Shown here: positions 42,002-64,000 of the stretch, in pieces
Layout of the letters: each line of letters begins with the position of its first letter
Position numbering within the stretch: position 1 is the first letter of the stretch
Assembly: GCA_017509065.1 (NCBI GenBank)
Contig: JAFWQM010000009.1
Span: 1 to 64,000, forward strand
Origin: Clostridia bacterium
Lineage (GTDB): Bacteria; Bacillota_A; Clostridia; Christensenellales; Aristaeellaceae
Direction of reading: 5' to 3'
DNA length: 64,000 nucleotides
The notes under the pieces: generated by a model
The model's database searches: none
What the model saw: the letters and a program-made list of their open reading frames with translations, nothing else
Told to the model about the DNA's origin: nothing
Position numbers and translations under genes: made by a program

Positions 42002-42045
42002 TTCCGTAAAAATGATAAAATCTTATGCGAACGGCGTTTCTGCTA

Positions 42046-42074
42046 TTGACGGCGGCATGGACTGAATATATAAT
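42046..42074 (+). promoter_or_regulatory. Promoter of the membrane pyrophosphatase gene
   Basis: TTGACG, 17 bases, TATAAT, followed by an 83-base leader and GGGAGG before the ATG at 42157. Confidence 0.78.
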
Positions 42075-42156
42075 AGGAAAGAAATTGGGGCCTGGCATGC
42101 AGAACATGACAATACCCTGCAATTATCATCATTTTCAGAATGGGAGGTTGTCCCCT

Positions 42157-44398: not shown

Positions 44399-45214
44399 TT
44401 ATTTTTTCTTCACTGGATAGCATATCTCGGTCACGAACTCATCCGGGTTCTGCGTTTCATGTGGGCTGACATGGTAGATATTGAACATCGGCCCAGCGGA
44501 TTCATACCCGTTCGCTTCCATCCACGCCACCACTGCGGCGTAAACATCCGTGATCTGGGTGTAGCTTCCCTGATAGATGCAGCTTGCCGCCGTTACCTCG
44601 GGCAGCGTTTGAAACTTCACGTGCTCGGTGTCGGGATAGCTGCCCTTCACAGTCTTCCACGCCATCATTTCCACGTTTTCTTCCTTGTATTCTCCGTCAA
44701 GGTATGTTACCGCACAGAGGCAGGGATCGGCTTCCGCGACGTGCATCCGGCAGGTTTCTTCCACCAGCACGCTCCAGATTCGTCCCTCTTCTTCATAGCG
44801 GGGAAGGGTCATCCGCACGGTGGCGGCGTAGCGTTCGGGAATGGTTTTGATGGTCACATCATAGCTCATGTTTTCTTCCTTTCTCAGCCTTTTTCTGGCC
44901 GCGTCCAGAAGCATCAGCTTGCGCGCCGTGTCACGGGACAGGGCTTCCAGTTCTCCCTGTCGCGAGGAAAAAAACCGCTCCATCTGTTCCCGGTCGTCGT
45001 ACACCGCGAGGATCTTCACGATATCGGCCAGAGAAAAACCCATATCCTTCAGCGCCGTGATTCGGCATACCGTCGGAAGCTGATCTTCTCTGTAATACCT
45101 GTAATCCGTGAAGCAGTCGGTTTCCGCGGGCTTTAGCAGACCGATCTCGTCATAGTGGCGCAGCATTCTGACGCTGACCCTGGACAGCTTTGAAAATTCT
45201 CCGATTTTCAGCAT
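44399..45214 (-). CDS. MerR family regulator with GyrI-like ligand domain
   Basis: A 271-residue regulator. Residues 1-70 are the MerR winged helix-turn-helix (MLKIGEFSKLSRVSVRMLRH), a helical linker follows, and residues 118-271 form a GyrI/Rob-like effector domain (VTIKTIPERYAATVRMTLPR; GYESAGPMFNIY). Such proteins respond to amphipathic drugs or cationic compounds. AAGGAGG precedes the ATG. The promoter upstream has the 19-base spacer and central dyad expected for MerR control, so it probably regulates itself. Confidence 0.9.
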   Translation of the reverse strand: MLKIGEFSKLSRVSVRMLRHYDEIGLLKPAETDCFTDYRYYREDQLPTVCRITALKDMGFSLADIVKILAVYDDREQMERFFSSRQGELEALSRDTARKLMLLDAARKRLRKEENMSYDVTIKTIPERYAATVRMTLPRYEEEGRIWSVLVEETCRMHVAEADPCLCAVTYLDGEYKEENVEMMAWKTVKGSYPDTEHVKFQTLPEVTAASCIYQGSYTQITDVYAAVVAWMEANGYESAGPMFNIYHVSPHETQNPDEFVTEICYPVKKK

Positions 45215-47046: not shown

Positions 47047-48450
47047 ATGAACAGGCGTATTGCAATATTTGGCATTCTGCTCGGTATCATCTTCACGTTC
47101 ATCGCCCCCCTTGCTCTGGCGGACGGTTATCCGCCTTACGAAATGTCGCTGACCTATATCCCAAAATGGGGGAAAGGAAACTTCATCGCGGGCGAAGTAT
47201 ACACCGAGGGCTGGAAAGTCGGGTATAACGGCCTGTGCGTGAAGGCTTTTCTCCAGGTGGAGGGCAGCGGCGAATGGTGGCCGAAGCCGACGGCTGAAAT
47301 GCCGTACGTGCCTGTGCGGGATGGGAAGTTCGGCATTACCTTCAATACCGGCGGGGACGATATCCACGCCACGCGGATCGCGCTGATGCTGGTTCGCGCA
47401 AGGGATGCCAGGCTGCTGGATTACGAATTGGCCAACGCGGCGGCTCTGTGCGTGGTCACCATTGACCGGGAACCGACGGGAGAAATCACGATCAATCATT
47501 CTTACCGGGCGGAGTATGTCGACACATCGACTTACGGCTTCCGCGACGGTATCAACATCGGCTTCTACACCCAGCCCGGCACGGCGCCCGGCGATCCGCT
47601 TTCGGAAGCGCACATCGAAGCGGTGCTGCGCTGCGCTGCCGCCTTTACCTGTGAGGTGCGGTTCTATTCCACCACCGGCGAAATCGCCAAGGCGTATCCG
47701 ATTGCCAGAGCGATGGGTCTGAGGGTCGCGGCCACCGCCTGGCTGGATGGCGGCGAGAATGACCAGGCCGAGCTGGACGCGCTGATCTCCCTGTGCAACC
47801 TGGGCTTTGCCGGCACGGCCATCGTGGGCAATGAAACGCAGTATGCCAAGCGCATTTCCGAAGAGACGCTGCTCGAGGACATTGCATACGTACGCGCCGG
47901 GATCCTCGATAAAAACATCCCTGTGACCACTGCGGACAATCTGGACGCTTTCCTGAACAGCCCCCGTCTCCGGGACGCGTGCGACGTGCTGTCTGTGAAT
48001 GTTTATCCCTATTGGAGCGGCATGAGCGCTGAGGACGACCTGGAAGCGGCGCTGGCCGGGGCACTGAACCAGCTGGCCGCGTGCGTGGACGAAAAACCGA
48101 TCATTCTGACGGAAACCGGCTGGCCCTCCGACGGTTCCTACCGGGCGGGTATCGAAGGACAGCGGAGAAACCTGAACGCCGCCTGGAACATGTCCTGGGC
48201 GAGCGACGCGAAGGTCGTGCGGGAATACTGGTTCTCCCTCGCGGACGAGCCCTGGAAGGAAGCGGATGAAACCGGCGTCGGCGCGTACTGGGGGCTGCTC
48301 GACAAAGACCTGAACATCAAGCCCATCATGTATGAAACGGTCTGGCAAAACTACAACGGGGACGATTACGTGACCGATCTGGATATAGAGGACGTGCTGA
48401 TTTACGCTCCTTTCAATTACAGACAGCCAAATGATTATGATGTGCAGTAG
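47047..48450 (+). CDS. Exported glycoside hydrolase family 17-like enzyme
   Basis: A 467-residue exported protein with a signal peptide (to ALA, residue about 26). The N-terminal ~130 residues are beta-rich, perhaps a binding domain. The catalytic half shows the GH17 pair: acid/base Glu263 in VGNE and nucleophile Glu356 in ETGWPS, both in sequence contexts typical of beta-1,3-glucanases (SVNVYPYW in between). Likely substrate is a beta-1,3-glucan of plants or fungi. It stands alone behind a strong promoter. Confidence 0.85.
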   Translation: MNRRIAIFGILLGIIFTFIAPLALADGYPPYEMSLTYIPKWGKGNFIAGEVYTEGWKVGYNGLCVKAFLQVEGSGEWWPKPTAEMPYVPVRDGKFGITFNTGGDDIHATRIALMLVRARDARLLDYELANAAALCVVTIDREPTGEITINHSYRAEYVDTSTYGFRDGINIGFYTQPGTAPGDPLSEAHIEAVLRCAAAFTCEVRFYSTTGEIAKAYPIARAMGLRVAATAWLDGGENDQAELDALISLCNLGFAGTAIVGNETQYAKRISEETLLEDIAYVRAGILDKNIPVTTADNLDAFLNSPRLRDACDVLSVNVYPYWSGMSAEDDLEAALAGALNQLAACVDEKPIILTETGWPSDGSYRAGIEGQRRNLNAAWNMSWASDAKVVREYWFSLADEPWKEADETGVGAYWGLLDKDLNIKPIMYETVWQNYNGDDYVTDLDIEDVLIYAPFNYRQPNDYDVQ

Positions 48451-50239: not shown

Positions 50240-51088
50240 TTATTCAGCCTTGGGAGCGAAGAAGCTGATCGGGGTCGCGCCGGTCATGGCGTCGGCGGCG
50301 AGCAGGGTGATCGGCACGTCTTCGATGCTCAGGGTGGTGAATTCACCGACGCGGCCGCTCTCGGTCACATACTTGAAGGTGAGGGCATGATGGCCGTCCG
50401 CATCGCCGGGGATGTTCCTGGTAATATACACCACTTCGTCGGGGGCAAGGCCATTTTCGATCCAGTTCGGGCCGTCATCGCCTTCCGCGTTGTAGGCGAC
50501 GTAGAGTTCCTTCACGGTTTCGCCGGTCTTGTTGTACACGGTGTAGTGGCCGGTCTGGATGTTGGCAGCCACGTCAGCGGCGGCAATGATGCCCTTGAGG
50601 TAGCCCAGGGTGTCGGCCAGGGTCGCGCCGGAAATCACATCCACGCCGGCGGCGTCGGCCTTGTCAAAGGCATACTCTTCCAGTTCGTAGATGGTCTTGC
50701 CGGCCACGAAAGCTTCGATGGCCTGCCAGCTCACCAGCAGCTCCTGGGTCGCGCCGCCGCGGGAAGCCATGTTGCCGCTGTAGAAGGCGTTGTTCACGCG
50801 CTTGGAGCCGAGCACTTTGCCATCTTCATTGCCGACAATGTTCGCGCCGAAAGCTGCGTCGCTGTTGGGCACGCCCACGACGCCTTCGCCGCTCATCACC
50901 TGGTATTCGTCGATCCAGGCGGCGAGAACGGTTTCATTCTGCACGGCGACGGTGATCACGGCGAACGCCTGCTGACCGTGCGCGGCGTACTGCACCTGAC
51001 CCAGCTTCACAGGGGCTTCTTCAGCCACGGCGGCGAACGAACACAGAATCATCAGACAGGCCAGGGTCAGCGCAAGGATTTTTTTCAT
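50240..51088 (-). CDS. Exported FMN-binding-like protein with two possible flavinylation motifs
   Basis: A 282-residue exported protein; the start at 51088 gives a clean signal peptide (to AEE, residue about 24) behind AAGGAGG nine bases upstream, while the longer frame begins at the promoter. Residues about 28-170 follow an FMN-binding (NqrC/RnfG-like) domain layout ending in DVISGATLADTLGYLKGI, where D150-V-I-S-G-A-T156 matches the ApbE-type motif D-x-x-S/T-G-A-S/T. A second copy, D266-A-M-T-G-A-T272, occurs near the end. If both are used, two flavins would be linked to one secreted protein. No apbE gene is in the window. Confidence 0.75.
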   Translation of the reverse strand: MKKILALTLACLMILCSFAAVAEEAPVKLGQVQYAAHGQQAFAVITVAVQNETVLAAWIDEYQVMSGEGVVGVPNSDAAFGANIVGNEDGKVLGSKRVNNAFYSGNMASRGGATQELLVSWQAIEAFVAGKTIYELEEYAFDKADAAGVDVISGATLADTLGYLKGIIAAADVAANIQTGHYTVYNKTGETVKELYVAYNAEGDDGPNWIENGLAPDEVVYITRNIPGDADGHHALTFKYVTESGRVGEFTTLSIEDVPITLLAADAMTGATPISFFAPKAE

Positions 51089-51134
51089 CGGAATATCCTC
51101 CTTTATTTTTTGAGCTTTTCGCTCTCTTGTGTTC

Positions 51135-51163
51135 ATTATACAGTATCCACGGCGGTATTTCAA
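51135..51163 (-). promoter_or_regulatory. Promoter of the FMN-binding-like gene
   Basis: On the minus strand TTGAAA, 17 bases, TATAAT, about 45 bases before the ATG. Confidence 0.75.
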
Positions 51164-51408: not shown

Positions 51409-52230
51409 TTAGATCGTGTTGGGACTATCCGCGGTTTCAGTTTCCAGCGTTTCCGTATAGATCCTTCCCTCCGCATGGATGAAGCCCCACACGCGTTTCC
51501 CTGGTGCGACGCGAAGAAAGTTCCGCCCGATGTCGGTCAGGTTTTCGATGTCCATGAGCAGCAGCAGGTTGCTGCCTCCGGCAGCCGGATTGCGGCGGTT
51601 GATGTTGTCCTCCGTCACGCCCATCAGGTAAACGCCCTCGCGTATTTTCACGTATACAGCGGGTTCCTCGTAAATCGGGTCGTCGATCAGCGGCGAATCA
51701 TCTCCGTCGGGACGGCGCAAAGCCTGGGCGCGGCAGAAGTGATCCAGATAGATGTGGGCGTTCACGAAGCCGTTGTAGTATGTCCAGGCGATCTTTTTCC
51801 CCGTCAGGTCGCAGGTGAAGCAGTGCCGCCGCCAGGGCAGCTCCTGTCCGTCCCGCTTGACGGCGCCGAAGGTATAGTCCGTTTTCGCCAGGTTGGGCCG
51901 GGCGGGAAACCCGCCGAAAACCGTGCGCGCGCGAGTGACCAGACCGTTGTCTTCGTCTATTACCAGCGTGACGCAGCAATAACCCAGCGGGTCCGGCTCC
52001 TCGTACGCGATCAGGCGCAGGGTGTTCCGCATGGTCAGGCTGCCGTAGTGCAGCCAGTCGGGCGTTTTTCCCTTCTTCATGCGGATCAGGTCTTCACCGG
52101 TTGAAAAGCTGTACAGCTCTTCCTCGCCGCTGTCGTATACAATGTGCATTGCGGTTCCAGCCAGACGGTAATCCAGCGTGCGGATAAATCGCTCGTCTCC
52201 CGCGAAATGAATGCCGTTCGCGGTGGGCAT
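51409..52230 (-). CDS. MoaF-like (calycin fold) protein, paralogue 1
   Basis: A 273-residue soluble protein. Two halves with calycin-type features are visible; the second holds DLTGKKIAWTYYNGFVNAHIYLDHF and YVKIREGVYLMGVTED, with NLLLLMDIENLTDIGR at the end. These match the MoaF C-terminal domain and resemble phenolic acid decarboxylases in layout. The same pattern occurs in the two genes at 56553 and 57466. It lies 14 bases behind GH95. AAGGGGAG precedes the ATG. The name MoaF comes from the family; a role in molybdenum cofactor is doubtful here. Confidence 0.75.
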   Translation of the reverse strand: MPTANGIHFAGDERFIRTLDYRLAGTAMHIVYDSGEEELYSFSTGEDLIRMKKGKTPDWLHYGSLTMRNTLRLIAYEEPDPLGYCCVTLVIDEDNGLVTRARTVFGGFPARPNLAKTDYTFGAVKRDGQELPWRRHCFTCDLTGKKIAWTYYNGFVNAHIYLDHFCRAQALRRPDGDDSPLIDDPIYEEPAVYVKIREGVYLMGVTEDNINRRNPAAGGSNLLLLMDIENLTDIGRNFLRVAPGKRVWGFIHAEGRIYTETLETETADSPNTI

Positions 52231-52244
52231 GCCGATCTCCCCTT

Positions 52245-54596
52245 TCAGCGAAGAAGGTATTCTTTCCCGGCCTGCGCCTGGAATTTAAAGCCGTACTCCG
52301 TTGTTTCCATTTGCACAGGCTGGCCGGAAAGAAGGATTTCGCTCACGCTGTCCGCACGGATCTCGATCGTTCCGTCCAGTTGAGGCCGTAGGATCGCTTC
52401 GGTCAGCTTTCCGTCCTCCCAGCTTATATCCGCTTTCACCGCGCCGCGCGCGGCAAGGCCCGTCACGCTGCCGCTCTGCCAGGCGGGCGGCAGGGCGGGG
52501 AGCAGATGAATGATACCGGTATGGCTCTGAATCAGGGCTTCGGCGATACCCGCCACCGCGCCAAGGTTGCCGTCAATTTGGAAAATACGCCGTCCGTTGA
52601 AGAAGCTGTCCGCCGCCTTGCCTACCATCTTGTCAATGGCCTTTCCAGTGGTTTCACCGTCCAACTGCCGCGCGTACTGGCAGATGCGCCAGGCCAGGGG
52701 CCACGCGCCACCGTCGGCTCCGTGATCCACACGCAGGTCGATGGACTTCCGCACGGCGCGCATCAGCTCGGGGGTGTCCTTCCAGTTCATCTGAGCGCTG
52801 GGATAGGCGGCGTAGAGGTGGGAAATATGGCCCATGCCCGGGGTTTTCTCCGGCACCTCCGTGCGCCATTCCAGCAGCTGCCCCTTGGAGCCGATCTGAT
52901 CTTCGGGCAGCAGCGCGGCGGCGCGGCGGAATTCCTCCGTCCATTCGTCCTGAGCATCCAATAATGTATCCGCCTCGATACATGCGCCGAACAGATCCCG
53001 CAAAATCTGATTGTCCATGGCCGGGCCGGCGCAGATGGGGGAGTCGTAGCCGTCGGGCAGGAGATAGCGGTTTTCGGGCGACAGGGAGGGGCAGGTGACC
53101 AGGTGGCCCGTGCCGTCGTCGGTAAGGAAGTCCACGAAGAAGATGGCGAATTCCCGCATGACGGGCTGCCACTCCCGCAGGAAGTCCAGGTCGCGGGTGA
53201 AGAGGAAATGCTCCCACAGGTGCATCGCCATCCACGCGCCGCCCGCCGTCCAGGAGGTGGAGGCCATATACTGATCCTGCGGCGCGGTGTCGCCGTAGTA
53301 GTCCGTGTTATGGTGGCAGACGGAGCCTCGCGCACCGTACATCACGCGGGCGGTCTTTTTGCCGCGCTCGCAGACGGTCTTGATGAGGGAGAACATGGAC
53401 TCGTGGGTCTCGCTGAGATTGCAGACCTCGGCGGGCCAGTAGTTCATCTGAATGTTGATGTTGGTGGTGTATTTGCTGTCCCACATGGGCGCGAAATCCT
53501 TGCACCAGATGCCCTGCAGGTTCAGCGCGGCGGAATCTTCCCTGCCACCGGAGAGCATCAGATACCGTCCGAAAGCGAAATACAGCGCGGCCAGGCCGGG
53601 GTCGGACTGCCCTTCTTTCACGGCGGCAATGCGTTCGTTTACAGGCGCGTCGGAAGCATTGGGCAGGGTCAGCACGCAGCGCCGCATGAGCATCTCGAAA
53701 TCGTCGGTGTGGCGTCTGAGCAATGCGTCAAACCCCTTTTTCCGCGCGGCGTTTACGGTATCCAGCGCCCAGGAAAGCGGGTCTTGCTCCCGGTTGTCCG
53801 TGGCGGAAGCCAGGTAAAGACAGACGCAGGAAGCATTTTCCGTATACAGCTGCGTATAACTGTCGGATACGTCGCCGTCGGAATCCATGGCCAGCGCCAG
53901 GCCGAACACGGTGCCGCCCGCGTTGCCGGATGCGGTGAGTGTGCTTTCGTCCACTGTGTGGTTGGTGTCCAGGAACATGCTGCCCCAACCGCCCGCGCGA
54001 ATCATCTTGCCGGGGCGGCGCGGGTCAGGCACCATGCCCTCAAAGATATAGCCGCGGTCATAGCGGACATTCAGCAGCAGCGTGCCGGGCCGGTCGGCGG
54101 TGAAGCGGATGCACATCACCTGATCGGGGTGGGAGATAAAGCATTCGCGGGCAAAATGCACGCCATTCTCTGTCCACGTCACACGATGAATGCCGCGCAT
54201 CAAGTCCAGTTCCCGCCTGTAATCCTCCGCGCCTTGGCTGTTGGGGGCCCAGCCCGCCGAGAAGGGGGAGAGGCAGTTGACGCCAATGTCCAGCTCGCCC
54301 AGGGATTCGTAATGCCGCATGGAGTACGGCGCGCCCAGCATGTACCGCTGGATCAGGTCTTCCGCCTCGCGAATCTCCCCGGCGAACACGCGCCTGCGGA
54401 TTTCCGGCAGCGCGTCCTTCAGGCGCGGATTGTCCCGCTCCATGGCCTTGCCGTACCACAGGCTGTCTTCATTCAACTGAATCCGTTCCACTTTGGTGTG
54501 TCCGTACACCATCGCGCCCAGCCGTCCGTTGCCCAGCGGCAGCGCGTCGCACCAGGCGTCCGCGGGTTTCCCATACCACATTTTCATTTCCGTCAT
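52245..54596 (-). CDS. Glycoside hydrolase family 95-like alpha-L-fucosidase/galactosidase
   Basis: A 783-residue cytoplasmic enzyme. The N-terminal domain begins WYGKPADAWCDALPLGNGRL and continues IQLNEDSLWYGK, the classic GH95 start. The (alpha/alpha)6 catalytic domain has NINIQMNYWPAEVCNLSE, and the C-terminal beta domain follows. Family members remove alpha-1,2-L-fucose or alpha-L-galactose residues with inversion. The ATG at 54596 follows GGAGG; an upstream ATG at 54635 would overlap the binding-protein gene. Sixteen bases separate it from that gene. Confidence 0.93.
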   Translation of the reverse strand: MTEMKMWYGKPADAWCDALPLGNGRLGAMVYGHTKVERIQLNEDSLWYGKAMERDNPRLKDALPEIRRRVFAGEIREAEDLIQRYMLGAPYSMRHYESLGELDIGVNCLSPFSAGWAPNSQGAEDYRRELDLMRGIHRVTWTENGVHFARECFISHPDQVMCIRFTADRPGTLLLNVRYDRGYIFEGMVPDPRRPGKMIRAGGWGSMFLDTNHTVDESTLTASGNAGGTVFGLALAMDSDGDVSDSYTQLYTENASCVCLYLASATDNREQDPLSWALDTVNAARKKGFDALLRRHTDDFEMLMRRCVLTLPNASDAPVNERIAAVKEGQSDPGLAALYFAFGRYLMLSGGREDSAALNLQGIWCKDFAPMWDSKYTTNINIQMNYWPAEVCNLSETHESMFSLIKTVCERGKKTARVMYGARGSVCHHNTDYYGDTAPQDQYMASTSWTAGGAWMAMHLWEHFLFTRDLDFLREWQPVMREFAIFFVDFLTDDGTGHLVTCPSLSPENRYLLPDGYDSPICAGPAMDNQILRDLFGACIEADTLLDAQDEWTEEFRRAAALLPEDQIGSKGQLLEWRTEVPEKTPGMGHISHLYAAYPSAQMNWKDTPELMRAVRKSIDLRVDHGADGGAWPLAWRICQYARQLDGETTGKAIDKMVGKAADSFFNGRRIFQIDGNLGAVAGIAEALIQSHTGIIHLLPALPPAWQSGSVTGLAARGAVKADISWEDGKLTEAILRPQLDGTIEIRADSVSEILLSGQPVQMETTEYGFKFQAQAGKEYLLR

Positions 54597-54612
54597 GATT
54601 TGCCTCCTTTGC

Positions 54613-56286
54613 TCAGTTCGTGATGTATTCGTCATAGGCTTGCTGCAAAAGCGATTGATAATCCCGCATCCCCAGCACGTCCAGCATGGACAGGTAAGCG
54701 TTCCAGTCGCTGTCCAGGTTCATGTAATCTGTAATGAAGTAAATGGTGCTCTGGCGCACGTACTGCCCGATGGCGGACTGATAATTCACCAGCTTCTTGG
54801 ATGCTTCCTCGGACGAAACGATGTTGGGATACACGCTGTCCTTTCCGGGGCTGTACTGTTCATATAATTCAGCGCATTTCCACAGCTCGTTTTCCCCGTT
54901 GAAGGTGCCCTCACCTACCAGCGCGCCTTTGCGGAAGCTGTCGAAGTTGGAGCAGATCTGCACGTCGGCGGGCCAATACTGCTGTTTGTCGCGGGGGATG
55001 CCCTGGTTTTCCCAGAGGAAGCGGTAGATGGCGGGGGAATCGTCGATGCCCATTCCGTCGTCCGCCTCGCACCACACCCAGTCAATTCCCTCCTGGCCGA
55101 AGTTCTGCACCAGCGTGCCTTCGGAGCTCGCCAGCAGGTCAAACAGCTGGATAGCGATATCTGGATAACGGCAGTCACGGGTCAGGAGGCCGTTGCAGTT
55201 GTAGAAGTAATCATAGCCGCTCTGGTAGCTCATGCGCGTGCCGTCCGGGCCGGCCAGCGGCGGCAGGCAAACCCATTCGCTGTAGGTACCGTTGTCGAGG
55301 ACGTGGTCTTCCACCTTGGGAAAGTAGCCGCTCGCCACCGCTCCGACGAGATGCGGTTCGGCTTCCAGGCGGGCGCTGAGCTGCCGCCCGTTCTGGGTGA
55401 ACGCCTGGCTGTGCAGCAGACCTTCCCGGCATAGATCGCGCAGGTAGCGCAGCGCTTCGCGGTAACCCTCCTCCGCCCAGGTACACTTGACCTGGCCATC
55501 GTCCACATAGCAGCCGGGGGCCACGGTCTGGTTGGTGGAGCCGAAAATTGTGTTGTTGTGCACGAAGGAATTGCTCAGGAACGTGATCGGGTCGGTGGCC
55601 CAGCCTTCCGCGATCTGGCCGGTGAGGGGGATTTCATCCTTCAAGCCGTTGCCGTTGGGATCGCTTTCCAATACTTTCCGCAGATAATCGCGGAATTCCT
55701 CCGTCGTTTCCGGCAGCTTACCGCCGCAAAGCGCATCAATCCAGGGCTGGTATACCCACATTCGGGCCTGGTGGGTGAGGTGGAAACATTCGTTCACCGA
55801 GCCGAAGCAGTAGATATGGCCGTCCGGCATGGTCAAATCTTCCCGCCGCCCCGGGCCGCAGATGTCGTTCAACCTGTTCCAGTTTTCGCAGCCCTTTAAG
55901 TATTCGTCCAGCGGCAGCACCACGCCCTCGATCCCGTACAAAGCGCATTCGGCCTTTGACCAGCGGGTGCAGAGCAGGATGTCGGGAAGCTCCGCTTCCG
56001 TTTCCACGCACAGGTTCAACTGCCGCTTGGCATCGCTGCCGCTGAATTCCCGCGTGATTTCCAGGCGCACGTTGGCTTTTTCCTCGATCCAGTCCAGCAC
56101 ATAATTATCGGAAACGCTCACGCTGTCCACGGCGTTGACCACCCAAGCCGTCAGCGTGACGGGGCTTTCCAGCGGGAAGAAGCTGCCGCTTCCCAGGATC
56201 GCCGCCGGGGCGGACTGTTCCCCGGACGCTGCGTATGCGATCAGCGTCGCCAGCACAAGCAGCAGGCACAGCCATCTTTTTTTCAT
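54613..56286 (-). CDS. Oligosaccharide ABC transporter binding protein, LplA type
   Basis: A 557-residue exported binding protein; a signal peptide of about 22 residues without lipobox cysteine (ending YAASGEQ). The type is shown by LDWIEEKANVRLEITREF, DILLCTRWSKAECALYGIEG and the repeated Trp-rich hinge. LplA-type proteins serve the LplB/YtcP-type permeases encoded at 61564-63478, which have a second binding protein gene of their own. The chosen ATG at 56286 follows AAGGTGGTGG; the longer frame would begin upstream of the promoter. Confidence 0.9.
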   Translation of the reverse strand: MKKRWLCLLLVLATLIAYAASGEQSAPAAILGSGSFFPLESPVTLTAWVVNAVDSVSVSDNYVLDWIEEKANVRLEITREFSGSDAKRQLNLCVETEAELPDILLCTRWSKAECALYGIEGVVLPLDEYLKGCENWNRLNDICGPGRREDLTMPDGHIYCFGSVNECFHLTHQARMWVYQPWIDALCGGKLPETTEEFRDYLRKVLESDPNGNGLKDEIPLTGQIAEGWATDPITFLSNSFVHNNTIFGSTNQTVAPGCYVDDGQVKCTWAEEGYREALRYLRDLCREGLLHSQAFTQNGRQLSARLEAEPHLVGAVASGYFPKVEDHVLDNGTYSEWVCLPPLAGPDGTRMSYQSGYDYFYNCNGLLTRDCRYPDIAIQLFDLLASSEGTLVQNFGQEGIDWVWCEADDGMGIDDSPAIYRFLWENQGIPRDKQQYWPADVQICSNFDSFRKGALVGEGTFNGENELWKCAELYEQYSPGKDSVYPNIVSSEEASKKLVNYQSAIGQYVRQSTIYFITDYMNLDSDWNAYLSMLDVLGMRDYQSLLQQAYDEYITN

Positions 56287-56375
56287 GGGGAATCCACCAC
56301 CTTTTCCGATACGCTCACCGCCGAACCGGATGGATATCTTCGATGCCTCCATTATACACGATTCGCTTTGGAAAA

Positions 56376-56407
56376 GATATATGCATCATTTTTCATGATA
56401 TATGCAT
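56376..56407. promoter_or_regulatory. Direct repeat in the divergent control region
   Basis: GATATATGCAT occurs at 56376-56386 and again at 56397-56407, centres 21 bases apart (two helical turns), in an AT-rich region between the two divergent operons. The minus-strand promoter -10 (TATAAT at 56351-56356) is next to it. This fits an AraC-type activator binding site. A plus-strand -10 (TATGAT) lies at 56494-56499. Confidence 0.5.
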
Positions 56408-56552
56408 TCCTTGTTTTCCTGATAAAAAATATTCAATCCTTTCGATTTGTCAAAATTTATGCAAATTTCTCCCACACAGCCCATGATTTGTGCTATGATG
56501 CAGACGAATGAGAACCGAAACGTTTCGGACATACGATAAGGAGGCCCACGAA

Positions 56553-57452
56553 ATGCCTGGCCCTGAAATCCGTTTTCCCAATCCTTTCCTGCCCGAAGCG
56601 CCCTGGAACGGGCTTGAGCAGTTCCGCGAGCCGCTGTGCTACGACCTGAAAGGCCATGCGTTTCAGCTGGTGATGGACAACGGCTGCCGCTACGCCCTGC
56701 ATTTTCTGTCCGAGGAAATGATCGCCTGGGGAGAGCAGGGAAAGGCGCTGCGCTGGGACACCTATGAATGCCTAAAGCTGGATGATGTGACCTACTTCGT
56801 CAACTGGGAAGTGTTCGGCATGGAGCTTCGCACCTGCATCACCCTGGTGCTCGACCTGAAAGCGAATCTGGTCACGGCGGTGCACGCGAAGATCGGCGCG
56901 GTGAAAACGGCCCCGTATCTGGTGACGAACGAGATCATCTTCGGCGCGATCAAGATGCCGGGTCAGCCGCTGAATCCCATGCGCCACGCCTTCACGCCGG
57001 ACCTGACCGGAAAGAACATTTTCTGGCGCTATTCCTCCAACTTCGGTATCACCCACGCTTTCATCACTGAGCATTTCCTCCGCGTGCCCATCGGTCAGCC
57101 GAGGGAACTGCCGCCGGACGCCACGCCGGAGCAGGTCGCGGAGCGGGACAAGGAATACGAGCGCCGCAAAAACCACCTGTTTGAAATCCCCGCTTTCTAC
57201 ATCAAGATTCGCGAGGACGTGTATTTCTTCGGGTTCATCGAGGAAACCGAGTGTCGCCAGAATCCCACCCTCTGCGGCAATAGCCTGATCATGGTGATGG
57301 ACACCAACAAAATCCACGACATCGGCCGCTGCTTCGCCAGCGATTATGAGAACCACTATGCCCCGCAGAACTTTGTTTTCTCCGCTTTCGGCGCGTTCCA
57401 CAACACGCCCGACCTGATCGACGGCATGCCCAGCCCGTACCGGATTTTCTGA
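56553..57452 (+). CDS. MoaF-like (calycin fold) protein, paralogue 2
   Basis: A 299-residue protein whose second half reads DLTGKNIFWRYSSNFGITHAF and IPAFYIKIREDVYFFGFIEE, closing with MDTNKIHDIGRCFA, the same signature as paralogues 1 and 3. The first half has a related strand pattern, so the protein looks like two calycin repeats. AAGGAGG lies eight bases before the ATG at 56553, in preference to the ATG at 56508. It heads the plus-strand operon and is 13 bases ahead of paralogue 3. Confidence 0.75.
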   Translation: MPGPEIRFPNPFLPEAPWNGLEQFREPLCYDLKGHAFQLVMDNGCRYALHFLSEEMIAWGEQGKALRWDTYECLKLDDVTYFVNWEVFGMELRTCITLVLDLKANLVTAVHAKIGAVKTAPYLVTNEIIFGAIKMPGQPLNPMRHAFTPDLTGKNIFWRYSSNFGITHAFITEHFLRVPIGQPRELPPDATPEQVAERDKEYERRKNHLFEIPAFYIKIREDVYFFGFIEETECRQNPTLCGNSLIMVMDTNKIHDIGRCFASDYENHYAPQNFVFSAFGAFHNTPDLIDGMPSPYRIF

Positions 57453-57465
57453 GGAGGGGACAGCG

Positions 57466-58374
57466 ATGAGCCACAAAGAACATGTTATAGGAAAAGAAAT
57501 CTATAATCCTGTTTCTCCCCGCCCCTCTGTGGGCGGCATGAAGCAGTACAAGGTCGCCTCCACCCTGGAGCTTTCGGGCAGGACACTGATTGCCCATCTG
57601 GACGGGCTTGAGCCGGTGTGCGTGCAATTCCTGGACGGAGAAAACCTGCTGTGGGGCCATCCGGGAGAAGCCATGCGCTGGGAAAACTACGAAGCTGCCA
57701 AGGGAGACGAGCGGCTGTATCTGATCAAATTCGTGCTGTCCGGGTCAAAGCCGATCACGCATATCACGCTCATCTGGGACGAGGACACGCGGCTCGTCAC
57801 CTGTGTCAGGGCCGTGCTCGGCGCGGACGCGGAGCAGCCTCGGCTGGTGGACAGCCAGGTGTATTTCGGCGCACAGAAAATCCCCCACGAGCCGCTGACG
57901 GAAAAGCGGCACGGATACACGGAAGATTTGCTGGGCAAGCGCATCGTGTGGCGCTATAACCCCAACGACGAGATCATGCACTGTTACTGCGGCACGGATT
58001 ATTTCCGGCTCGGCCTGTCCAGAAAAATACTGGTGGAGAACGCTTCGGAGGAAGCGAAAGCGCATTATCAGCGCTTCATTGAGCGGCAGGGCATTTATCC
58101 GGTGTACGAGGAACCGGCTTATTACATCAAACTGCGCGAGGGATTCTATCTGTATTCCGTGACGGAAAAGAACGTCAACCGCCTGCTTCCGAAGCAGGGC
58201 GGCAACCAGCTGCTGATTCTGCTGAACGCGCTTCGCGTGCGCTACATCGGCCGGGTGTTCGGGTATCACGAGGACGGCACGTTGGAAAACGACTTCATCG
58301 GCGCGATCGGAAAGTTCTGGCCGGAGCCCGACGAGGTGGAAGCATTGCCTTATCCTGTTTATCAGGCGGAATAA
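57466..58374 (+). CDS. MoaF-like (calycin fold) protein, paralogue 3
   Basis: A 302-residue protein with DLLGKRIVWRYNPNDEIMHCY and YEEPAYYIKLREGFYLYSVT in the second half, then LRVRYIGRVF. The core differs from paralogues 1 and 2, so this is an old divergence. A ribosome binding site GAGGGGACAG precedes it. A 244-base gap follows, containing an eight-base inverted repeat (GTGCAATT at 58390-58397, AATTGCAC at 58423-58430), so GH4 may have its own promoter. Confidence 0.75.
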   Translation: MSHKEHVIGKEIYNPVSPRPSVGGMKQYKVASTLELSGRTLIAHLDGLEPVCVQFLDGENLLWGHPGEAMRWENYEAAKGDERLYLIKFVLSGSKPITHITLIWDEDTRLVTCVRAVLGADAEQPRLVDSQVYFGAQKIPHEPLTEKRHGYTEDLLGKRIVWRYNPNDEIMHCYCGTDYFRLGLSRKILVENASEEAKAHYQRFIERQGIYPVYEEPAYYIKLREGFYLYSVTEKNVNRLLPKQGGNQLLILLNALRVRYIGRVFGYHEDGTLENDFIGAIGKFWPEPDEVEALPYPVYQAE

Positions 58375-58389
58375 AAAACATAACGTTTC

Positions 58390-58430
58390 GTGCAATTAAC
58401 GTTTTTTTAGATATGGGAAAAGAATTGCAC
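58390..58430. promoter_or_regulatory. Inverted repeat before the GH4 gene
   Basis: Perfect GTGCAATT and AATTGCAC arms, 25 bases apart, with two copies of AACGTTT between and beside them. Could be a regulator site or a weak hairpin after the MoaF-like genes. The remainder of the gap to 58618 is AT-rich, with a TATAAA at about 58528. Confidence 0.4.
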
Positions 58431-58618
58431 AGTCATTTCTGACCTTCATCCTGAAAAATGGGTGATATGGCGTAATTTTTTCCAAAAATAAAATTTTGTA
58501 TATTTACTTTTGGGCAAAAAAGGTGTATAAAAGAAGTATCAGAAAAACCAATTTGTCAGTTAAGCATCCCCGGGAAGGATCGGGATGGAACTTATTTGCA
58601 GCAGAAAGGCGAAACGTT

Positions 58619-59941
58619 ATGCCAAAGAAAATCGTTTTCATCGGTGCGGGCAGCTTCATCTTTACCCGCAATCTGTGCCGCGACATCCTGACCTTTGACG
58701 CCCTCCGGGACGCGGAACTGTGGCTGGTGGATATCAACGCGGAACACCTCGAAATGGCCCGCCGCATGGTGCAGCGCTACGTGGACGCAGGAAACTATCC
58801 CGCCACCGTGCATTGCACCCTGGACCGCAGGGAAGCGCTGCCGGGCGCCGACGGCATCCTGTGCACCATCCAGGTGGGCGGCTGGGAAGCGCTGAAGGAC
58901 GAGCTTGGCATTCCCTCTCAGTACGGCATCGAGGCCGCCATCGGCGACACCCGCGGCGTGTGGGGCATCTTCTGCTACCTGCGCACGGTGCAGGCCATCG
59001 TGGACATTGCCAAAGACGCCATGGAACTGTGCCCGGACGCGGTGTTCCTCAACTACACCAATCCCATGGCCATGCTCTGCCGCACGGTGCAGACCCTGTT
59101 CCCCAAGCTGAACTATATCGGCCTGTGCCACAGCGTGCAAGAAACGATCATGCTGCTGGCCAAATGGCTGGGCGTCACGCCGAAGGACATGACCTACACC
59201 TGCGCGGGCCTGAACCACACCGCCTTTTACCTCACCCTGAAATGCAAGGGCGAGGACGCTTACCCCATGCTGCGCAAGATCGTGGACGATCCGGAAATCT
59301 ACAAGACCGAGCGCGTGCGCATCGAAATGTTCAAGCACCTGGGCTACTTCGTCACGGAAAGCTCCTATCACAACAGCGAATATAACGGCTGGTTCCGCAA
59401 GCGGGATGATCTGATGATGAAATACTGCCCGCCGGTGAGTTTCAGGGGCGAGCCCGCCGAGCATATGAGCAAACGTATCCAGAACGGCGGCTTCTTCCGT
59501 GGACGTTCCCGGATGGACATGCTGGAAAAGTGGTTCGGCGAGGAAATCACCCTGAACCGCGGCCATGAGTTTGCCAGCTACATCTTCAATGCCGTTTTCG
59601 GCGACGGCACGCCCTTTGAATTCAACGGCAACGTGCGCAACTTCCACCTGATCGACAACCTGCCCTACGGCGCGTGCGTGGAGGTGCCCATCCTGACCGA
59701 TCCCAATGGCTTAAAGCCCACCCGCATCGGCATGATGCCTCCTGAACTGGCCGCGCTGAACACCATCGAGAGCCAGGTGGAGGAGATGGCTGTGGAGGCA
59801 TATCTGAACCGGGACAAGTCTATGATCTATAAGGCGGTCTATTACGATCCTTACACAGCGGCCAAGCTGAGCCTGGATGAAATGGACGAAATGACCGGGA
59901 AGATGCTGGACGCCTGCGGGAAGTATCACAGCTTCTGGTGA
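58619..59941 (+). CDS. Glycoside hydrolase family 4 (alpha-galactosidase/alpha-galacturonidase type)
   Basis: A 440-residue NAD+- and Mn2+-dependent glycosidase. The Rossmann start is KIVFIGAGSFIFTRNLCRDI; NYTNPMAML and CHSVQE follow. The metal ligands are Cys170 (CHSVQ) and His200 (GLNH). GH4 works by oxidation-elimination. The CHSVQ type covers alpha-galactosidases and the LplD alpha-galacturonidases; the LplABC-type context favours the latter, but residues alone do not decide it. The ATG at 58619 has AAAGGCG upstream; the longer frame starts in AT-rich DNA. Confidence 0.9.
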   Translation: MPKKIVFIGAGSFIFTRNLCRDILTFDALRDAELWLVDINAEHLEMARRMVQRYVDAGNYPATVHCTLDRREALPGADGILCTIQVGGWEALKDELGIPSQYGIEAAIGDTRGVWGIFCYLRTVQAIVDIAKDAMELCPDAVFLNYTNPMAMLCRTVQTLFPKLNYIGLCHSVQETIMLLAKWLGVTPKDMTYTCAGLNHTAFYLTLKCKGEDAYPMLRKIVDDPEIYKTERVRIEMFKHLGYFVTESSYHNSEYNGWFRKRDDLMMKYCPPVSFRGEPAEHMSKRIQNGGFFRGRSRMDMLEKWFGEEITLNRGHEFASYIFNAVFGDGTPFEFNGNVRNFHLIDNLPYGACVEVPILTDPNGLKPTRIGMMPPELAALNTIESQVEEMAVEAYLNRDKSMIYKAVYYDPYTAAKLSLDEMDEMTGKMLDACGKYHSFW

Positions 59942-59962
59942 ACATAATAAGGTGGGATTTGA

Positions 59963-61521
<1,559 letters not shown>

Positions 61522-61563
61522 TCACAAAGGCCAAAGAAACATGAAAGGGAGGTGATGGGAATT

Positions 61564-62508
61564 ATGTCCAACCAGGTCATCATTCCTAAGAAAACATTCC
61601 AACAGCGCTTGAGGAGAGACCTGAAACGGTACAAGATCGTCTATTTTTTGGGCTTCCTGTGCCTGGCCTACTATATCATCTTCCACTATCTGCCCATGGG
61701 CGGCATCATCATCGCGTTCAAAGATTTCCGCGCGGCGCGCGGCATCTTCGGAAGCAAGTGGGCCAATCCCTGGTATAAGCATTTCGAGCAATTCTTCACC
61801 GGCTACTACTTCGGCCGTCTGCTGAGGAACACGCTGCTGATCAACGTCATGGACCTGATCTTCGGCTTCCCCGCGCCTATCATCCTGGCGCTGCTGCTCA
61901 ACGAGCTAAAGTCTTCCGCCTACAAACGCACCGTGCAGACGGTGACCTACCTGCCCCACTTCATTTCACAGGTGGTCGTGTGCGGCATCGTGCTGGACTT
62001 CTTCTCCTCCAGCGGTATCGTCAATCAGCTCATCCAGTCATTGGGCGGCACAAAGGTACAGTTCATGCTGGAACCCGGCTGGTTCCGCCCCATCTACGTG
62101 GGGTCCGGCATCTGGCAGGGCGTGGGCTACGGCTCTATCATCTACCTGTCCGCCCTGGGCGGCGTGGACGCCGACCTGTATGATGCCGCCACCATCGACG
62201 GCTGCAACCGCTTCGGCCGCGTGCTCCATGTGACGATCCCGGGCATCCTGCCCACGATCATCATCATGCTGATCCTGCGCGTGGGCAGCATGCTCAGCGT
62301 GGGCTTTGAAAAAATCATCCTGCTCTACAATGAAACCATCTACGAAACCGCCGACGTGATTTCGTCCTACGTGTACCGCACAGGTCTGGTGAAAGGAAGC
62401 TACAGCTTCGCCACCGCCGTGGGTCTCTTCAACTCCCTGTTCAACTTCCTGCTGCTGATTATGGTCAACGCCATCAGCCGCAAGGTCAGTGAAGTATCGC
62501 TGTGGTAA
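61564..62508 (+). CDS. Oligosaccharide ABC transporter permease, LplB type
   Basis: A 314-residue permease with the LplB-type first span YFLGFLCLAYYIIFHYLPMG and the EAA loop DLYDAATIDGCNRFGRVLHV followed by TIPGILP. GGGAGG lies eleven bases before the ATG at 61564. No ATPase gene is in the locus; in such systems a shared MsmX-type ATPase (for example the one at 5994) usually serves. Confidence 0.93.
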   Translation: MSNQVIIPKKTFQQRLRRDLKRYKIVYFLGFLCLAYYIIFHYLPMGGIIIAFKDFRAARGIFGSKWANPWYKHFEQFFTGYYFGRLLRNTLLINVMDLIFGFPAPIILALLLNELKSSAYKRTVQTVTYLPHFISQVVVCGIVLDFFSSSGIVNQLIQSLGGTKVQFMLEPGWFRPIYVGSGIWQGVGYGSIIYLSALGGVDADLYDAATIDGCNRFGRVLHVTIPGILPTIIIMLILRVGSMLSVGFEKIILLYNETIYETADVISSYVYRTGLVKGSYSFATAVGLFNSLFNFLLLIMVNAISRKVSEVSLW

Positions 62509-62524
62509 AGGGGGGTAGCAAGCA

Positions 62525-63478
62525 ATGAATCAAAGCATTTCTTCGGGCAAAGTCAAAAACCCGCATGACCACAGCCACAGGAACTGGAACTACGGCTTGC
62601 CCTCCGTCGGCAGCAGGATATTCGACGCCGTCAACGTCACCATCATGTTCCTGCTGATGCTGGTCACGGTGTATCCCTTCCTGTACGTGCTCTTCGCATC
62701 CATGAGCGATCCCCTGAAGCTGTATTCCCATACCGGATTGCTGCTGGCCCCCAAGGGCTTCTCCCTGCGCGGCTACCAGTACGTGCTGAATTACCGCTCC
62801 ATCTGGAACGGCTACCTGGTCACCCTGTTCCTGTCCACCGTTGGCACCGCCTGTACGCTGGTTTCCTCCCTGCTGTTCGCCTACGTGCTCAGCAAGAAGG
62901 ACAGTATGCTCCACAGCTTCTTCACCTTCACCGCCATCTTCACCATGTATTTTAATGGCGGTATGATCCCCACCTACCTGATCGTGAAGGAAGTGGGCCT
63001 GCTCAATTCTCTGTGGGCTCTGATCATCCCCGGCCTGATCAGCACGTACTACGTCATTATCCTGCGCACGGCCATCATGGGTGTGCCCAAGGAAATGACG
63101 GAATCGGCCGAGCTGGACGGCGCCAATGAGTTCATCGTGCTTGTGCGCATCCTGCTCCCGCTGATCGTTCCCACCATCGCCGCCATCGGCCTGTTCATCG
63201 TGGTGGGCTACTGGAACAGCTGGACCAGCGCCCTGCTCTACATTCAGGACACCAAGAAGATGCCCCTGCAGATGGTGCTGCGCCAGATCCTTGTGAACAA
63301 CGATATGTCTGCCGCTGCCGGCACCGGCGCCAGCAACCGCTCCGGTGAAGACTCGGCCACCCGCCTGCTGCTCAAATATGCCACCATCATTGTGTCCACC
63401 GTTCCCATCATCTGCGTCTATCCCTTCCTGCAGAAGCACTTCACCAAGGGCATCATGATCGGCGCCCTGAAGGGCTGA
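62525..63478 (+). CDS. Oligosaccharide ABC transporter permease, YtcP/LplC type
   Basis: A 317-residue permease; first span VNVTIMFLLMLVTVYPFLYV, EAA loop EMTESAELDGANEFIVLVRI then LPLIVP. It is 16 bases behind LplB and forms the channel with it. The C-terminal ...RSGEDSATRLLLKYATII stretch is usual for this group. Confidence 0.93.
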   Translation: MNQSISSGKVKNPHDHSHRNWNYGLPSVGSRIFDAVNVTIMFLLMLVTVYPFLYVLFASMSDPLKLYSHTGLLLAPKGFSLRGYQYVLNYRSIWNGYLVTLFLSTVGTACTLVSSLLFAYVLSKKDSMLHSFFTFTAIFTMYFNGGMIPTYLIVKEVGLLNSLWALIIPGLISTYYVIILRTAIMGVPKEMTESAELDGANEFIVLVRILLPLIVPTIAAIGLFIVVGYWNSWTSALLYIQDTKKMPLQMVLRQILVNNDMSAAAGTGASNRSGEDSATRLLLKYATIIVSTVPIICVYPFLQKHFTKGIMIGALKG

Positions 63479-63544
63479 CGCCCCGTTTCACCCGTATGCT
63501 GCATGGCTGAAAGTCATGAGCAAATATAAAAGGAGGTTCATCCC

Positions 63545-64000
63545 ATGAAAAAACTCATCGCTCTGGTGTGCGCACTGGCTTTGCTGGTGACCGCCATCCC
63601 CTTCGCTCTTGCGGAAGATCCCATTGAGATCACCTGGTTCCGTCAGGAGCTGAATCGCAATGCCGTCGCTTATTACAGCGATACCGCCTGGTTCCAGGAA
63701 CTGCAGAACCGCCTGGGCATCAAGATCACCATCCAGGGCCCCGGCGTCTCCTCTGACGACTACAATACGGCCGTGAACGCCATGCTGGTTTCCGGTGAAT
63801 ATCCGGACATCCTCAGCTACAACTTCGACGACTATTCCGGCGGCTGGCTGGCTGGCGTGGAAGACGGCATCATTGTGCCCATCAGCGAGATCCCTGAATA
63901 CAAGGAAAAGGTTCCCAACTGGTTCAACGTGATCGAGTCTAATCCCGCTGTGCGCCGCGGCGTCACGCTGGAAGACGGTTCCGTGGTCACTTTCGCCCAC
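63545..64000 (+). CDS. Second LplA-type binding protein (partial, runs off the window)
   Basis: The start of a binding protein gene: ATG at 63545 behind AAAGGAGG, then a signal peptide (MKKLIALVCALALLVTAIPF, ending ALA) and a mature protein beginning EDPIEITWFRQELNRNAVAY. The first 152 residues are present with no stop. This second binding protein would recruit another sugar for the same permeases. It is in the same group as the one at 54613. Confidence 0.9.
   Translation, partial: MKKLIALVCALALLVTAIPFALAEDPIEITWFRQELNRNAVAYYSDTAWFQELQNRLGIKITIQGPGVSSDDYNTAVNAMLVSGEYPDILSYNFDDYSGGWLAGVEDGIIVPISEIPEYKEKVPNWFNVIESNPAVRRGVTLEDGSVVTFAH

What the first reader, a model, noticed from the sequence alone, without database searches (positions are those of the whole stretch)
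51409..64000. Three MoaF-like calycin paralogues inside a GH95/GH4/esterase/LplBC glycan locus
Seen: genes at 51409, 56553 and 57466 share the pattern D-L-x-G-K-x-I-x-W-x-Y followed by E/I-P-A-x-Y-x-K-x-R-E-x-x-Y and end x-x-I-G-R; each looks like two related halves. They are placed on both arms of a divergent locus with GH95, GH4, an esterase and an FMN-type protein. Known: MoaF and phenolic acid decarboxylases share the calycin fold. Inference: these proteins are unlikely to serve molybdenum cofactor; they may process a product of the esterase (for example a hydroxycinnamate) or a modified sugar, so the locus could encode a new route for decorated plant oligosaccharides. I know of no described function.
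Basis: partly seen in the sequence, partly recalled or inferred. Interest (0 to 1): 0.8.

Follow-up and report, generated by a model that had tools for sequence, protein, structure and literature searches.

The report
MoaF-like trio in gut glycan loci
Three related proteins of unknown function in a gut-type bacterium belong to an add-on gene module, together with a flavin protein and a ferulate-type esterase, that is plugged into a sugar-uptake locus and may process the phenolic groups attached to plant fibre.

Summary
Three paralogues of about 33% identity (MoaF1 51409-52230 -, MoaF2 56553-57452 +, MoaF3 57466-58374 +) sit on both arms of a divergent LplBC/GH95/GH4/CE1/flavoprotein locus. MoaF3 is predicted with high confidence as a two-barrel calycin; best PDB match is the uncharacterised MoaF 4q51, then phenolic acid decarboxylases (PAD). 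New here: (1) relatives often sit in clusters of two to five copies near glycan importers; (2) many are fused to an NADH:flavin-reductase-like domain, one to a PNPOx flavoprotein; (3) at the window's orthologous locus, MoaF, PNPOx and the feruloyl-esterase-like CE1 are all present (5 of 5) or all absent (2 of 2), while importer and GH4 are constant; (4) the C-barrel keeps an invariant W-x-Y...H...E set whose Y and E line up, weakly, with PAD Tyr13 and Glu64. I read this as a co-inherited accessory module; most likely chemistry: acid-base/redox conversion of a phenolic (hydroxycinnamoyl-type) group released in the cytosol. The module is well supported; the substrate is inference. CE1 occurs only in the window's locus type, so a sugar substrate remains a serious rival. 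No paper assigning MoaF a reaction was found in the held library.

The parts
51409..52230 (-). MoaF1, 273 aa; divergent MoaF-like paralogue
   Evidence: no Pfam hit; own group with G002 and G010 orthologues
52245..54635 (-). GH95 glycosidase (no signal peptide seen by eye); Thr at the position of Thr370 of the alpha-L-galactosidase 4ufc
   Evidence: PMC4491172 passages
54613..56352 (-). solute-binding-type protein, by clustering only (its cluster holds L073:5225-6853 with SBP_bac_1); no Pfam hit itself
56353..56507 (.). intergenic stretch between the two divergent gene runs
   Evidence: coordinates
56553..57452 (+). MoaF2, 299 aa (ORF open from 56508)
   Evidence: own group
57466..58374 (+). 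MoaF3, 302 aa; predicted two-barrel calycin
   Evidence: own group
58619..59941 (+). GH4-family glycosidase (ORF open from 58496)
59963..61129 (+). CE1 esterase with CBM48-like N-part (CBM48 below Pfam cut-off); feruloyl-esterase-like
61126..61521 (+). PNPOx_N / NimA-NimC-like flavoprotein, 131 aa (ORF open from 61060)
61552..62508 (+). LplB-type ABC permease
62525..63478 (+). LplC-type ABC permease
63545..64000 (+). probable solute-binding protein, cut by the window end; by clustering only
   Evidence: no Pfam hit

Best explanation
The three MoaF-like proteins are two-barrel calycin enzymes that form, with the PNPOx/NimA-type flavoprotein and the CE1 esterase, an accessory module added to an oligosaccharide-import locus. 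Proposed working: LplBC imports a plant oligosaccharide that carries a hydroxycinnamoyl ester; CE1 releases ferulate or p-coumarate in the cytosol; the C-barrels of the MoaF proteins hold the phenol with the invariant Trp/Tyr pair and use the invariant Glu as acid-base to go through a quinone-methide-like intermediate (decarboxylation, hydration or isomerisation); the flavoprotein, and in other lineages an NAD(P)H:flavin-reductase-like domain fused to MoaF, supply electrons for a reduction. Shown: fold of MoaF3 (predicted), paralogy, clustering, co-inheritance, fusions, invariant residues. Inferred: cytosolic ester release, phenolic substrate, acid-base role, flavin reduction.
Against: CE1 is missing from all MoaF loci outside the window's locus type (found in 5 of 30 loci). 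Sequence-profile match of MoaF to PAD is weak (C-half of A3 E 0.005, probability 7%; 0.3-2.6% for the other three halves), PAD's Tyr11 is replaced and no counterpart of Arg41 was found, and none of the three proteins matches the PAD family in Pfam. The PAD fold match lies on the N-barrel while the invariant residues lie in the C-barrel. No NAD-domain fusion or PF13460-type hit was found in the window's 20 kb. Co-inheritance rests on 7 related loci. No substrate test exists.
Confidence: 0.4

Rival explanations
1. The MoaF proteins act on the sugar itself: lyases, dehydratases or isomerases for an unusual or oxidised sugar (for example a 3-keto or unsaturated sugar related to GH4-type NAD chemistry), with the reductase/flavin partners doing sugar redox.
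For: Widely shared companions are glycan genes: LplC in 16 and LplB in 15 of 30 loci against 4 of 20 controls each, MGH1-like GH in 8 of 30 against 0 of 20; a 1111-aa ORF joins MGH1-like GH, NAD domain and MoaF; GH4 lies within 10 kb of MoaF in 5 of 24 genomes (my count), two of them (G063, G111) with no CE1 found in the locus; Trp replaces the Tyr of 4q51, as in sugar-stacking sites (inference).
Against: GH4 and the importer stay when MoaF is absent (G110, G264), and what leaves with MoaF there is the esterase and the flavoprotein. GH4 alone is not significant: 6 of 30 loci against 1 of 20 controls, p 0.14. Fold kin with known chemistry is PAD.
Confidence: 0.3
2. The MoaF proteins are non-catalytic ligand binders or sequestering proteins (calycins), for example for phenolics, flavin or a sugar.
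For: Lipocalin-like barrels often bind rather than convert (general knowledge); several deep paralogues with diverging N-barrels.
Against: Invariant His, Tyr, Trp over 98 rows and Glu over 97 readable ones and recurrent fusion to a redox domain suggest catalysis.
Confidence: 0.17
3. The module reduces a linear tetrapyrrole (dietary chlorophyll breakdown product) rather than a phenolic: biliverdin-reductase-like domain plus PNPOx flavoprotein plus calycin binder.
Confidence: 0.04
4. Molybdenum cofactor function, as the family name says.
For: Family name only.
Against: No Moco family turned up among the neighbours that I annotated; a C. necator paper calls moaF 'MoCo-unrelated' (PMC11540253 passage).
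Confidence: 0.02

Closest known systems
MoaF family (PF10703/PF17409), structure 4q51 of Burkholderia cenocepacia
   Different: About 22% identity; Trp for the first Tyr; clustered paralogues in glycan loci; fusions to flavin-reductase-like domains. 4q51 is annotated only as putative/uncharacterised
Phenolic acid decarboxylase (PF05870)
   Different: No PF05870 match; Tyr11 replaced, no Arg41 counterpart; 0 of 245 genomes of G009's class have PF05870
NADH-flavin reductase-like proteins (4r01, BLVRB, ChuY)
   Different: Fused to MoaF; not found in the window's 20 kb
Feruloyl esterases CE1 with CBM48 (6rzo, 7b5v)
   Same: E 4e-59 and 8e-59; Ser and His regions aligned to 6rzo
   Different: In an ABC-import locus with MoaF; substrate untested
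GH95 alpha-L-galactosidase of the Bacteroides ovatus xylan locus (4ufc)
   Same: Thr at the Thr370 position
   Different: The same Thr is in 2rdy and 7kmq, so it does not settle specificity; ABC importer

Membership tests
MoaF (PF10703 + PF17409) | Score over the curated Pfam cut-offs | tested here: met
   MoaF2 and MoaF3 met for both models; MoaF1 not met (no hit)
MoaF (PF10703 + PF17409) | Two-barrel fold of 4q51 | tested here: met
Molybdenum cofactor biosynthesis | Moco genes in the neighbourhood | tested here: inconclusive
   None among the neighbours annotated; whole genome of the window not held
Phenolic acid decarboxylase | PF05870 match | tested here: not met
   No PF05870 hit for the three proteins at E 0.1
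Phenolic acid decarboxylase | Calycin barrel fold | tested here: met
Phenolic acid decarboxylase | Tyr11, Tyr13, Arg41, Glu64 set | tested here: inconclusive
   Tyr13- and Glu64-like kept, Tyr11 replaced by Trp, no Arg41 counterpart found; alignment weak; placing the B. subtilis numbers on the PADs used is my own reading; no coordinates to superpose
Phenolic acid decarboxylase | Decarboxylates p-hydroxycinnamates | not testable with these tools
   needs enzyme assay
CE1 feruloyl esterase | Homology to solved feruloyl esterases with catalytic Ser and His regions | tested here: met
CE1 feruloyl esterase | NCBIfam xylanase/feruloyl-esterase equivalog cut-off | tested here: not met
   198 bits against 1200; the model is 694 positions long and describes a bifunctional protein
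GH95 alpha-L-galactosidase | Thr at the Thr370 position (His in the fucosidase AfcA) | tested here: met
   the paper says the determinant is not settled
PNPOx / NimA-NimC flavoprotein | PF01243 over cut-off | tested here: met
   44.8 bits against 28.1; 2ig6 E 3.5e-40

The most novel reading that the evidence does not exclude
A portable anaerobic 'phenolic module' of gut clostridia: a feruloyl esterase frees hydroxycinnamate inside the cell, and a set of PAD-like double-barrel MoaF enzymes forms a quinone-methide intermediate that is reduced by a flavoprotein, with the flavin reductase built into the enzyme in other lineages. It would be a new enzyme class and a new route by which fibre degraders remove phenolics carried in on oligosaccharides.
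Probability: 0.25. Interest if true: 0.82.

Novelty: new variant of a known kind. Interest (0 to 1): 0.6.

Why it matters
MoaF is a Pfam family with a solved structure but no reaction that I could find in the held library. The gene module described here (MoaF clusters, flavoprotein, flavin-reductase fusions, feruloyl-type esterase in an otherwise constant import locus) gives a concrete, testable assignment with a short list of proteins and substrates. If right, it explains how anaerobic fibre degraders deal inside the cell with phenolic decorations of hemicellulose, which bear on feed digestibility and on the fate of dietary phenolics.

Tried and rejected
Moco role: no Moco family among the annotated neighbours. 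PAD under its own family: 0 of 245 genomes of G009's class. Statistical link of GH4 to MoaF: 6 of 30 against 1 of 20, p 0.14, not significant by itself; GH95 and CE1 5 of 30 against 0 of 20, p 0.067 each; GH3 2 of 30 against 0 of 20, p 0.36. First PAD comparison used wrong-strand translations for three of the five PADs and was discarded; repeated correctly. In global mode hhalign gave almost empty alignments for the two fusion-family halves. The first greedy gene caller chose antisense ORFs and was replaced by a codon-usage caller, which still missed MoaF3 of G002 (seen by tblastn), so the tree lacks it; from the tree I also dropped loci L011 and L062 as duplicates and rows with a match span under 200 or over 420 residues (45 rows kept; the tool warns of one long branch, L067_4235). 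MoaF in plasmids: no match for MoaF2; the fusion protein matched 196 plasmid records, none covering 80% of it, and the ten listed match only its first 209-234 residues. MoaF in viral contigs: none. The VIA lists do not exclude other folds. My note gives 12 PNPOx hits in 11 genomes near MoaF; recounted it is 11 of 29 hits in 10 of 24 genomes.
Full report
WHAT IS IN THE WINDOW. The minus arm reads MoaF1 (51409-52230), GH95 (52245-54635) and a solute-binding-type protein (54613-56352); the plus arm reads MoaF2 (56553-57452), MoaF3 (57466-58374), GH4, CE1 esterase, PNPOx flavoprotein, LplB, LplC and a second binding-type protein cut by the window end (the two binding-type proteins have no Pfam hit and are named by clustering). 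The three MoaF-like proteins are pairwise 33-34% identical (E 6e-38, 5e-34, 3e-53). MoaF2 and MoaF3 pass Pfam's cut-offs for PF10703 and PF17409; MoaF1 has no Pfam hit. The two halves of the family are related by profile comparison (E 4e-6, probability 87%), although this was not seen with the second alignment (2.4%, same call).

RELATIVES COME IN CLUSTERS. One scan of genome contigs gave 15 loci: 14 in clostridial records (some contigs or assemblies twice; one named for roe-deer rumen) and one, weak, in an actinobacterial record (that the RUG names mean rumen and others termite gut is my recollection). All 12 genomes then probed hold matches, 11 of them two to nine pieces (one gene can give several pieces). 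In a sample of 300 genomes of G002's family, 17 have matches, 11 of these more than one piece. In a sample of 391 genomes of G009's class searched with the fusion profile, 19 match, but only four of them (G009, G365, G392, G476) in the MoaF part; the others match the flavin-reductase-like part alone. So the family is sporadic. Of the 30 MoaF loci that I scanned, 17 hold two to five MoaF ORFs; several of the rest lie on short contigs. In a 45-row tree the three window proteins fall in three separate, well-supported groups, each with orthologues in other genomes: the split of the paralogues is old and kept.

NEIGHBOURHOOD WITH CONTROL. I scanned 30 MoaF loci from 25 genomes (window included; 3-20 kb each, six of them under 9 kb) and 20 control regions of 20 kb, taken at coordinates that I chose by hand on long contigs of 8 of the same genomes, with profiles built from the loci. 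Present in MoaF loci / controls: PNPOx 11 of 30 / 0 of 20 (p 0.0015); NAD domain 11 / 0 (p 0.0015); LplC 16 / 4 (p 0.018); LplB 15 / 4 (p 0.031); MGH1-like GH 8 / 0 (p 0.011); GH95 5 / 0 and CE1 5 / 0 (p 0.067 each); GH4 6 / 1 (p 0.14); GH3 2 / 0 (p 0.36). These p-values ignore relatedness, and the profiles were trained on the loci. Of 29 PNPOx hits in 24 MoaF genomes, 11, in 10 genomes, lie within 10 kb of a MoaF hit (my count). LplBC is common in these genomes (1 to 42 LplB hits per genome), so its link alone is modest.

A NATURAL EXPERIMENT. The window's LplB has six orthologues of 78-82% identity in 300 genomes of G002's family; the next is 59% (at most seven candidates per genome were scored). 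Four of these loci (G001, G002, G003, G010) carry MoaF genes, PNPOx and CE1, as the window does. Two (G110; G264 contig C55) keep GH95, binding-type protein, LplC, LplB, GH4, GH3 and a carboxylesterase-type gene in much the same arrangement but lack MoaF, PNPOx and CE1, by gene calls and by tblastn of the window proteins. So the pattern is 5 of 5 against 0 of 2. Close CE1 orthologues (70-81%) occur in 4 of the 300 genomes, exactly those four; the next are 43-45%. G264 holds a different MoaF cluster elsewhere (NAD fusions beside a PNPOx, L074); G110 has no MoaF match at all (not among the 17). A MatE transporter lies in the G002 and G010 loci. MoaF, PNPOx and CE1 thus behave as one inherited unit placed in a locus that also exists without them. 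The sample is small and its members are related.

ACTIVE-SITE CLUES. W162, Y164 and H172 (MoaF3 numbering) are invariant in 45 of 45 and 53 of 53 rows, and E234 in 44 of 44 readable and 53 of 53. All lie in the C-barrel. In 4q51 the aligned residues are Tyr, Tyr, His, Glu. In a forced global alignment of the A3 C-half with five PADs, W162/Y164 fall on a Tyr-x-Tyr of PAD and E234 on its Glu, but the profile score is weak (probability 5-7%, E 0.002-0.005), and the A4 halves did not align globally. That these PAD residues are the Tyr11, Tyr13 and Glu64 of the B. subtilis enzyme is my reading of the motif. In PAD the two Tyr hold the p-hydroxyl group and the Glu is the general acid on the way through a quinone methide (passages of PMC10176493 and PMC10915792). 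I found no counterpart of Arg41. The N-barrel is more variable: the place of V90 of MoaF3 is Glu in 18 of 45 rows, and what I take for the same place is Glu in 53 of 53 fusion rows, so the paralogues probably differ in function.

WHAT THE LOCUS MAY EAT. The esterase is nearest to feruloyl esterases and a CE1 with CBM48 (6rzo E 4e-59, 7b5v E 8e-59; Ser and His regions aligned). The GH95 has Thr where the B. ovatus alpha-L-galactosidase has Thr370 and a fucosidase has His, but so do 2rdy and 7kmq. L-galactose and ferulate both occur on heteroxylan side chains (L-galactose: passages of PMC4491172; ferulate: a title in its reference list; the joint side chain is recalled). No signal peptide is visible by eye in GH95 and CE1. 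A feruloylated heteroxylan side-chain oligosaccharide is therefore a fitting, unproven substrate.

HOW IT PROBABLY WORKS. Import; release of the hydroxycinnamate in the cytosol; MoaF acid-base step on the phenol; reduction through flavin. Everything beyond fold, co-inheritance and fusion is inference. The main weakness is that CE1 is confined to one locus type, while the MoaF/flavin association and glycan importers are shared more widely; a common sugar substrate therefore stays at 0.3.

LITERATURE. Five searches of the held open-access library were about MoaF; five more were about PAD, 3-keto-glycosides, xylan side chains and hydroxycinnamates. None of the listings showed a paper that assigns a reaction to MoaF; one search listed 40 of 70 hits, most of them other meanings of the letters, and I opened only two of them for the gene (PMC12322963 and PMC11540253, one passage each; the latter calls moaF a MoCo-unrelated fluoride transporter). 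The library lacks most subscription papers, so absence there is no proof. The origin of the name in the Klebsiella monoamine regulon is recalled, not checked. A 2024 'alternative broad-specificity' glycan pathway by 3-keto-glycosides is known to me by recall and by its mention in listings only.

VERDICT. Observation right; interpretation partly supported and sharpened: from 'three odd paralogues' to a co-inherited, flavin-linked module. Interest 0.6.

Noticed in passing
window 50240-51163 (-): 307-aa protein with a signal-peptide-like start and SGAT/TGAT motifs of the FMN-binding kind (recalled motif); Pfam FMN_bind only at E 0.34. May be a divergent covalent-flavin protein; not among the conserved neighbours.
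   Followed up: partly
L066:8417-11752: Single 1111-aa ORF joining MGH1-like glycosidase, NAD(P)H-binding domain and MoaF; could be a real fusion or a sequence error at a gene border.
   Followed up: partly
L071:575-5290 and L068:5973-10512: In G111 and G063 a lone MoaF lies near a GH4 and a conserved 243-249-aa protein (no Pfam hit for the G111 copy), in G111 also a MatE transporter: a second MoaF-GH4 arrangement with no esterase found.
   Followed up: partly
L105:1440-7150 and L106:4750-9760: LplB-LplC-binding protein-MoaF-PNPOx gene order in two other genomes, a minimal version of the module.
   Followed up: partly
L074 (G264): A PNPOx and two NAD-MoaF fusions follow directly on a polysaccharide-biosynthesis gene run.
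   Followed up: no
L077:338-2245 and L070:9610-11418: About 600-635-aa proteins with MoaF in one half and, for L077, a first half without Pfam hit; the first half may be a diverged second MoaF.
   Followed up: no
window 47047-48450 (+): 467-aa protein with signal-peptide-like start and a GH17 match just under the cut-off (27.4 against 28.2 bits).
   Followed up: no
window 42025-44307 (+) and 44399-45214 (-): Membrane pyrophosphatase and a MerR/GyrI-like regulator; ordinary.
   Followed up: no
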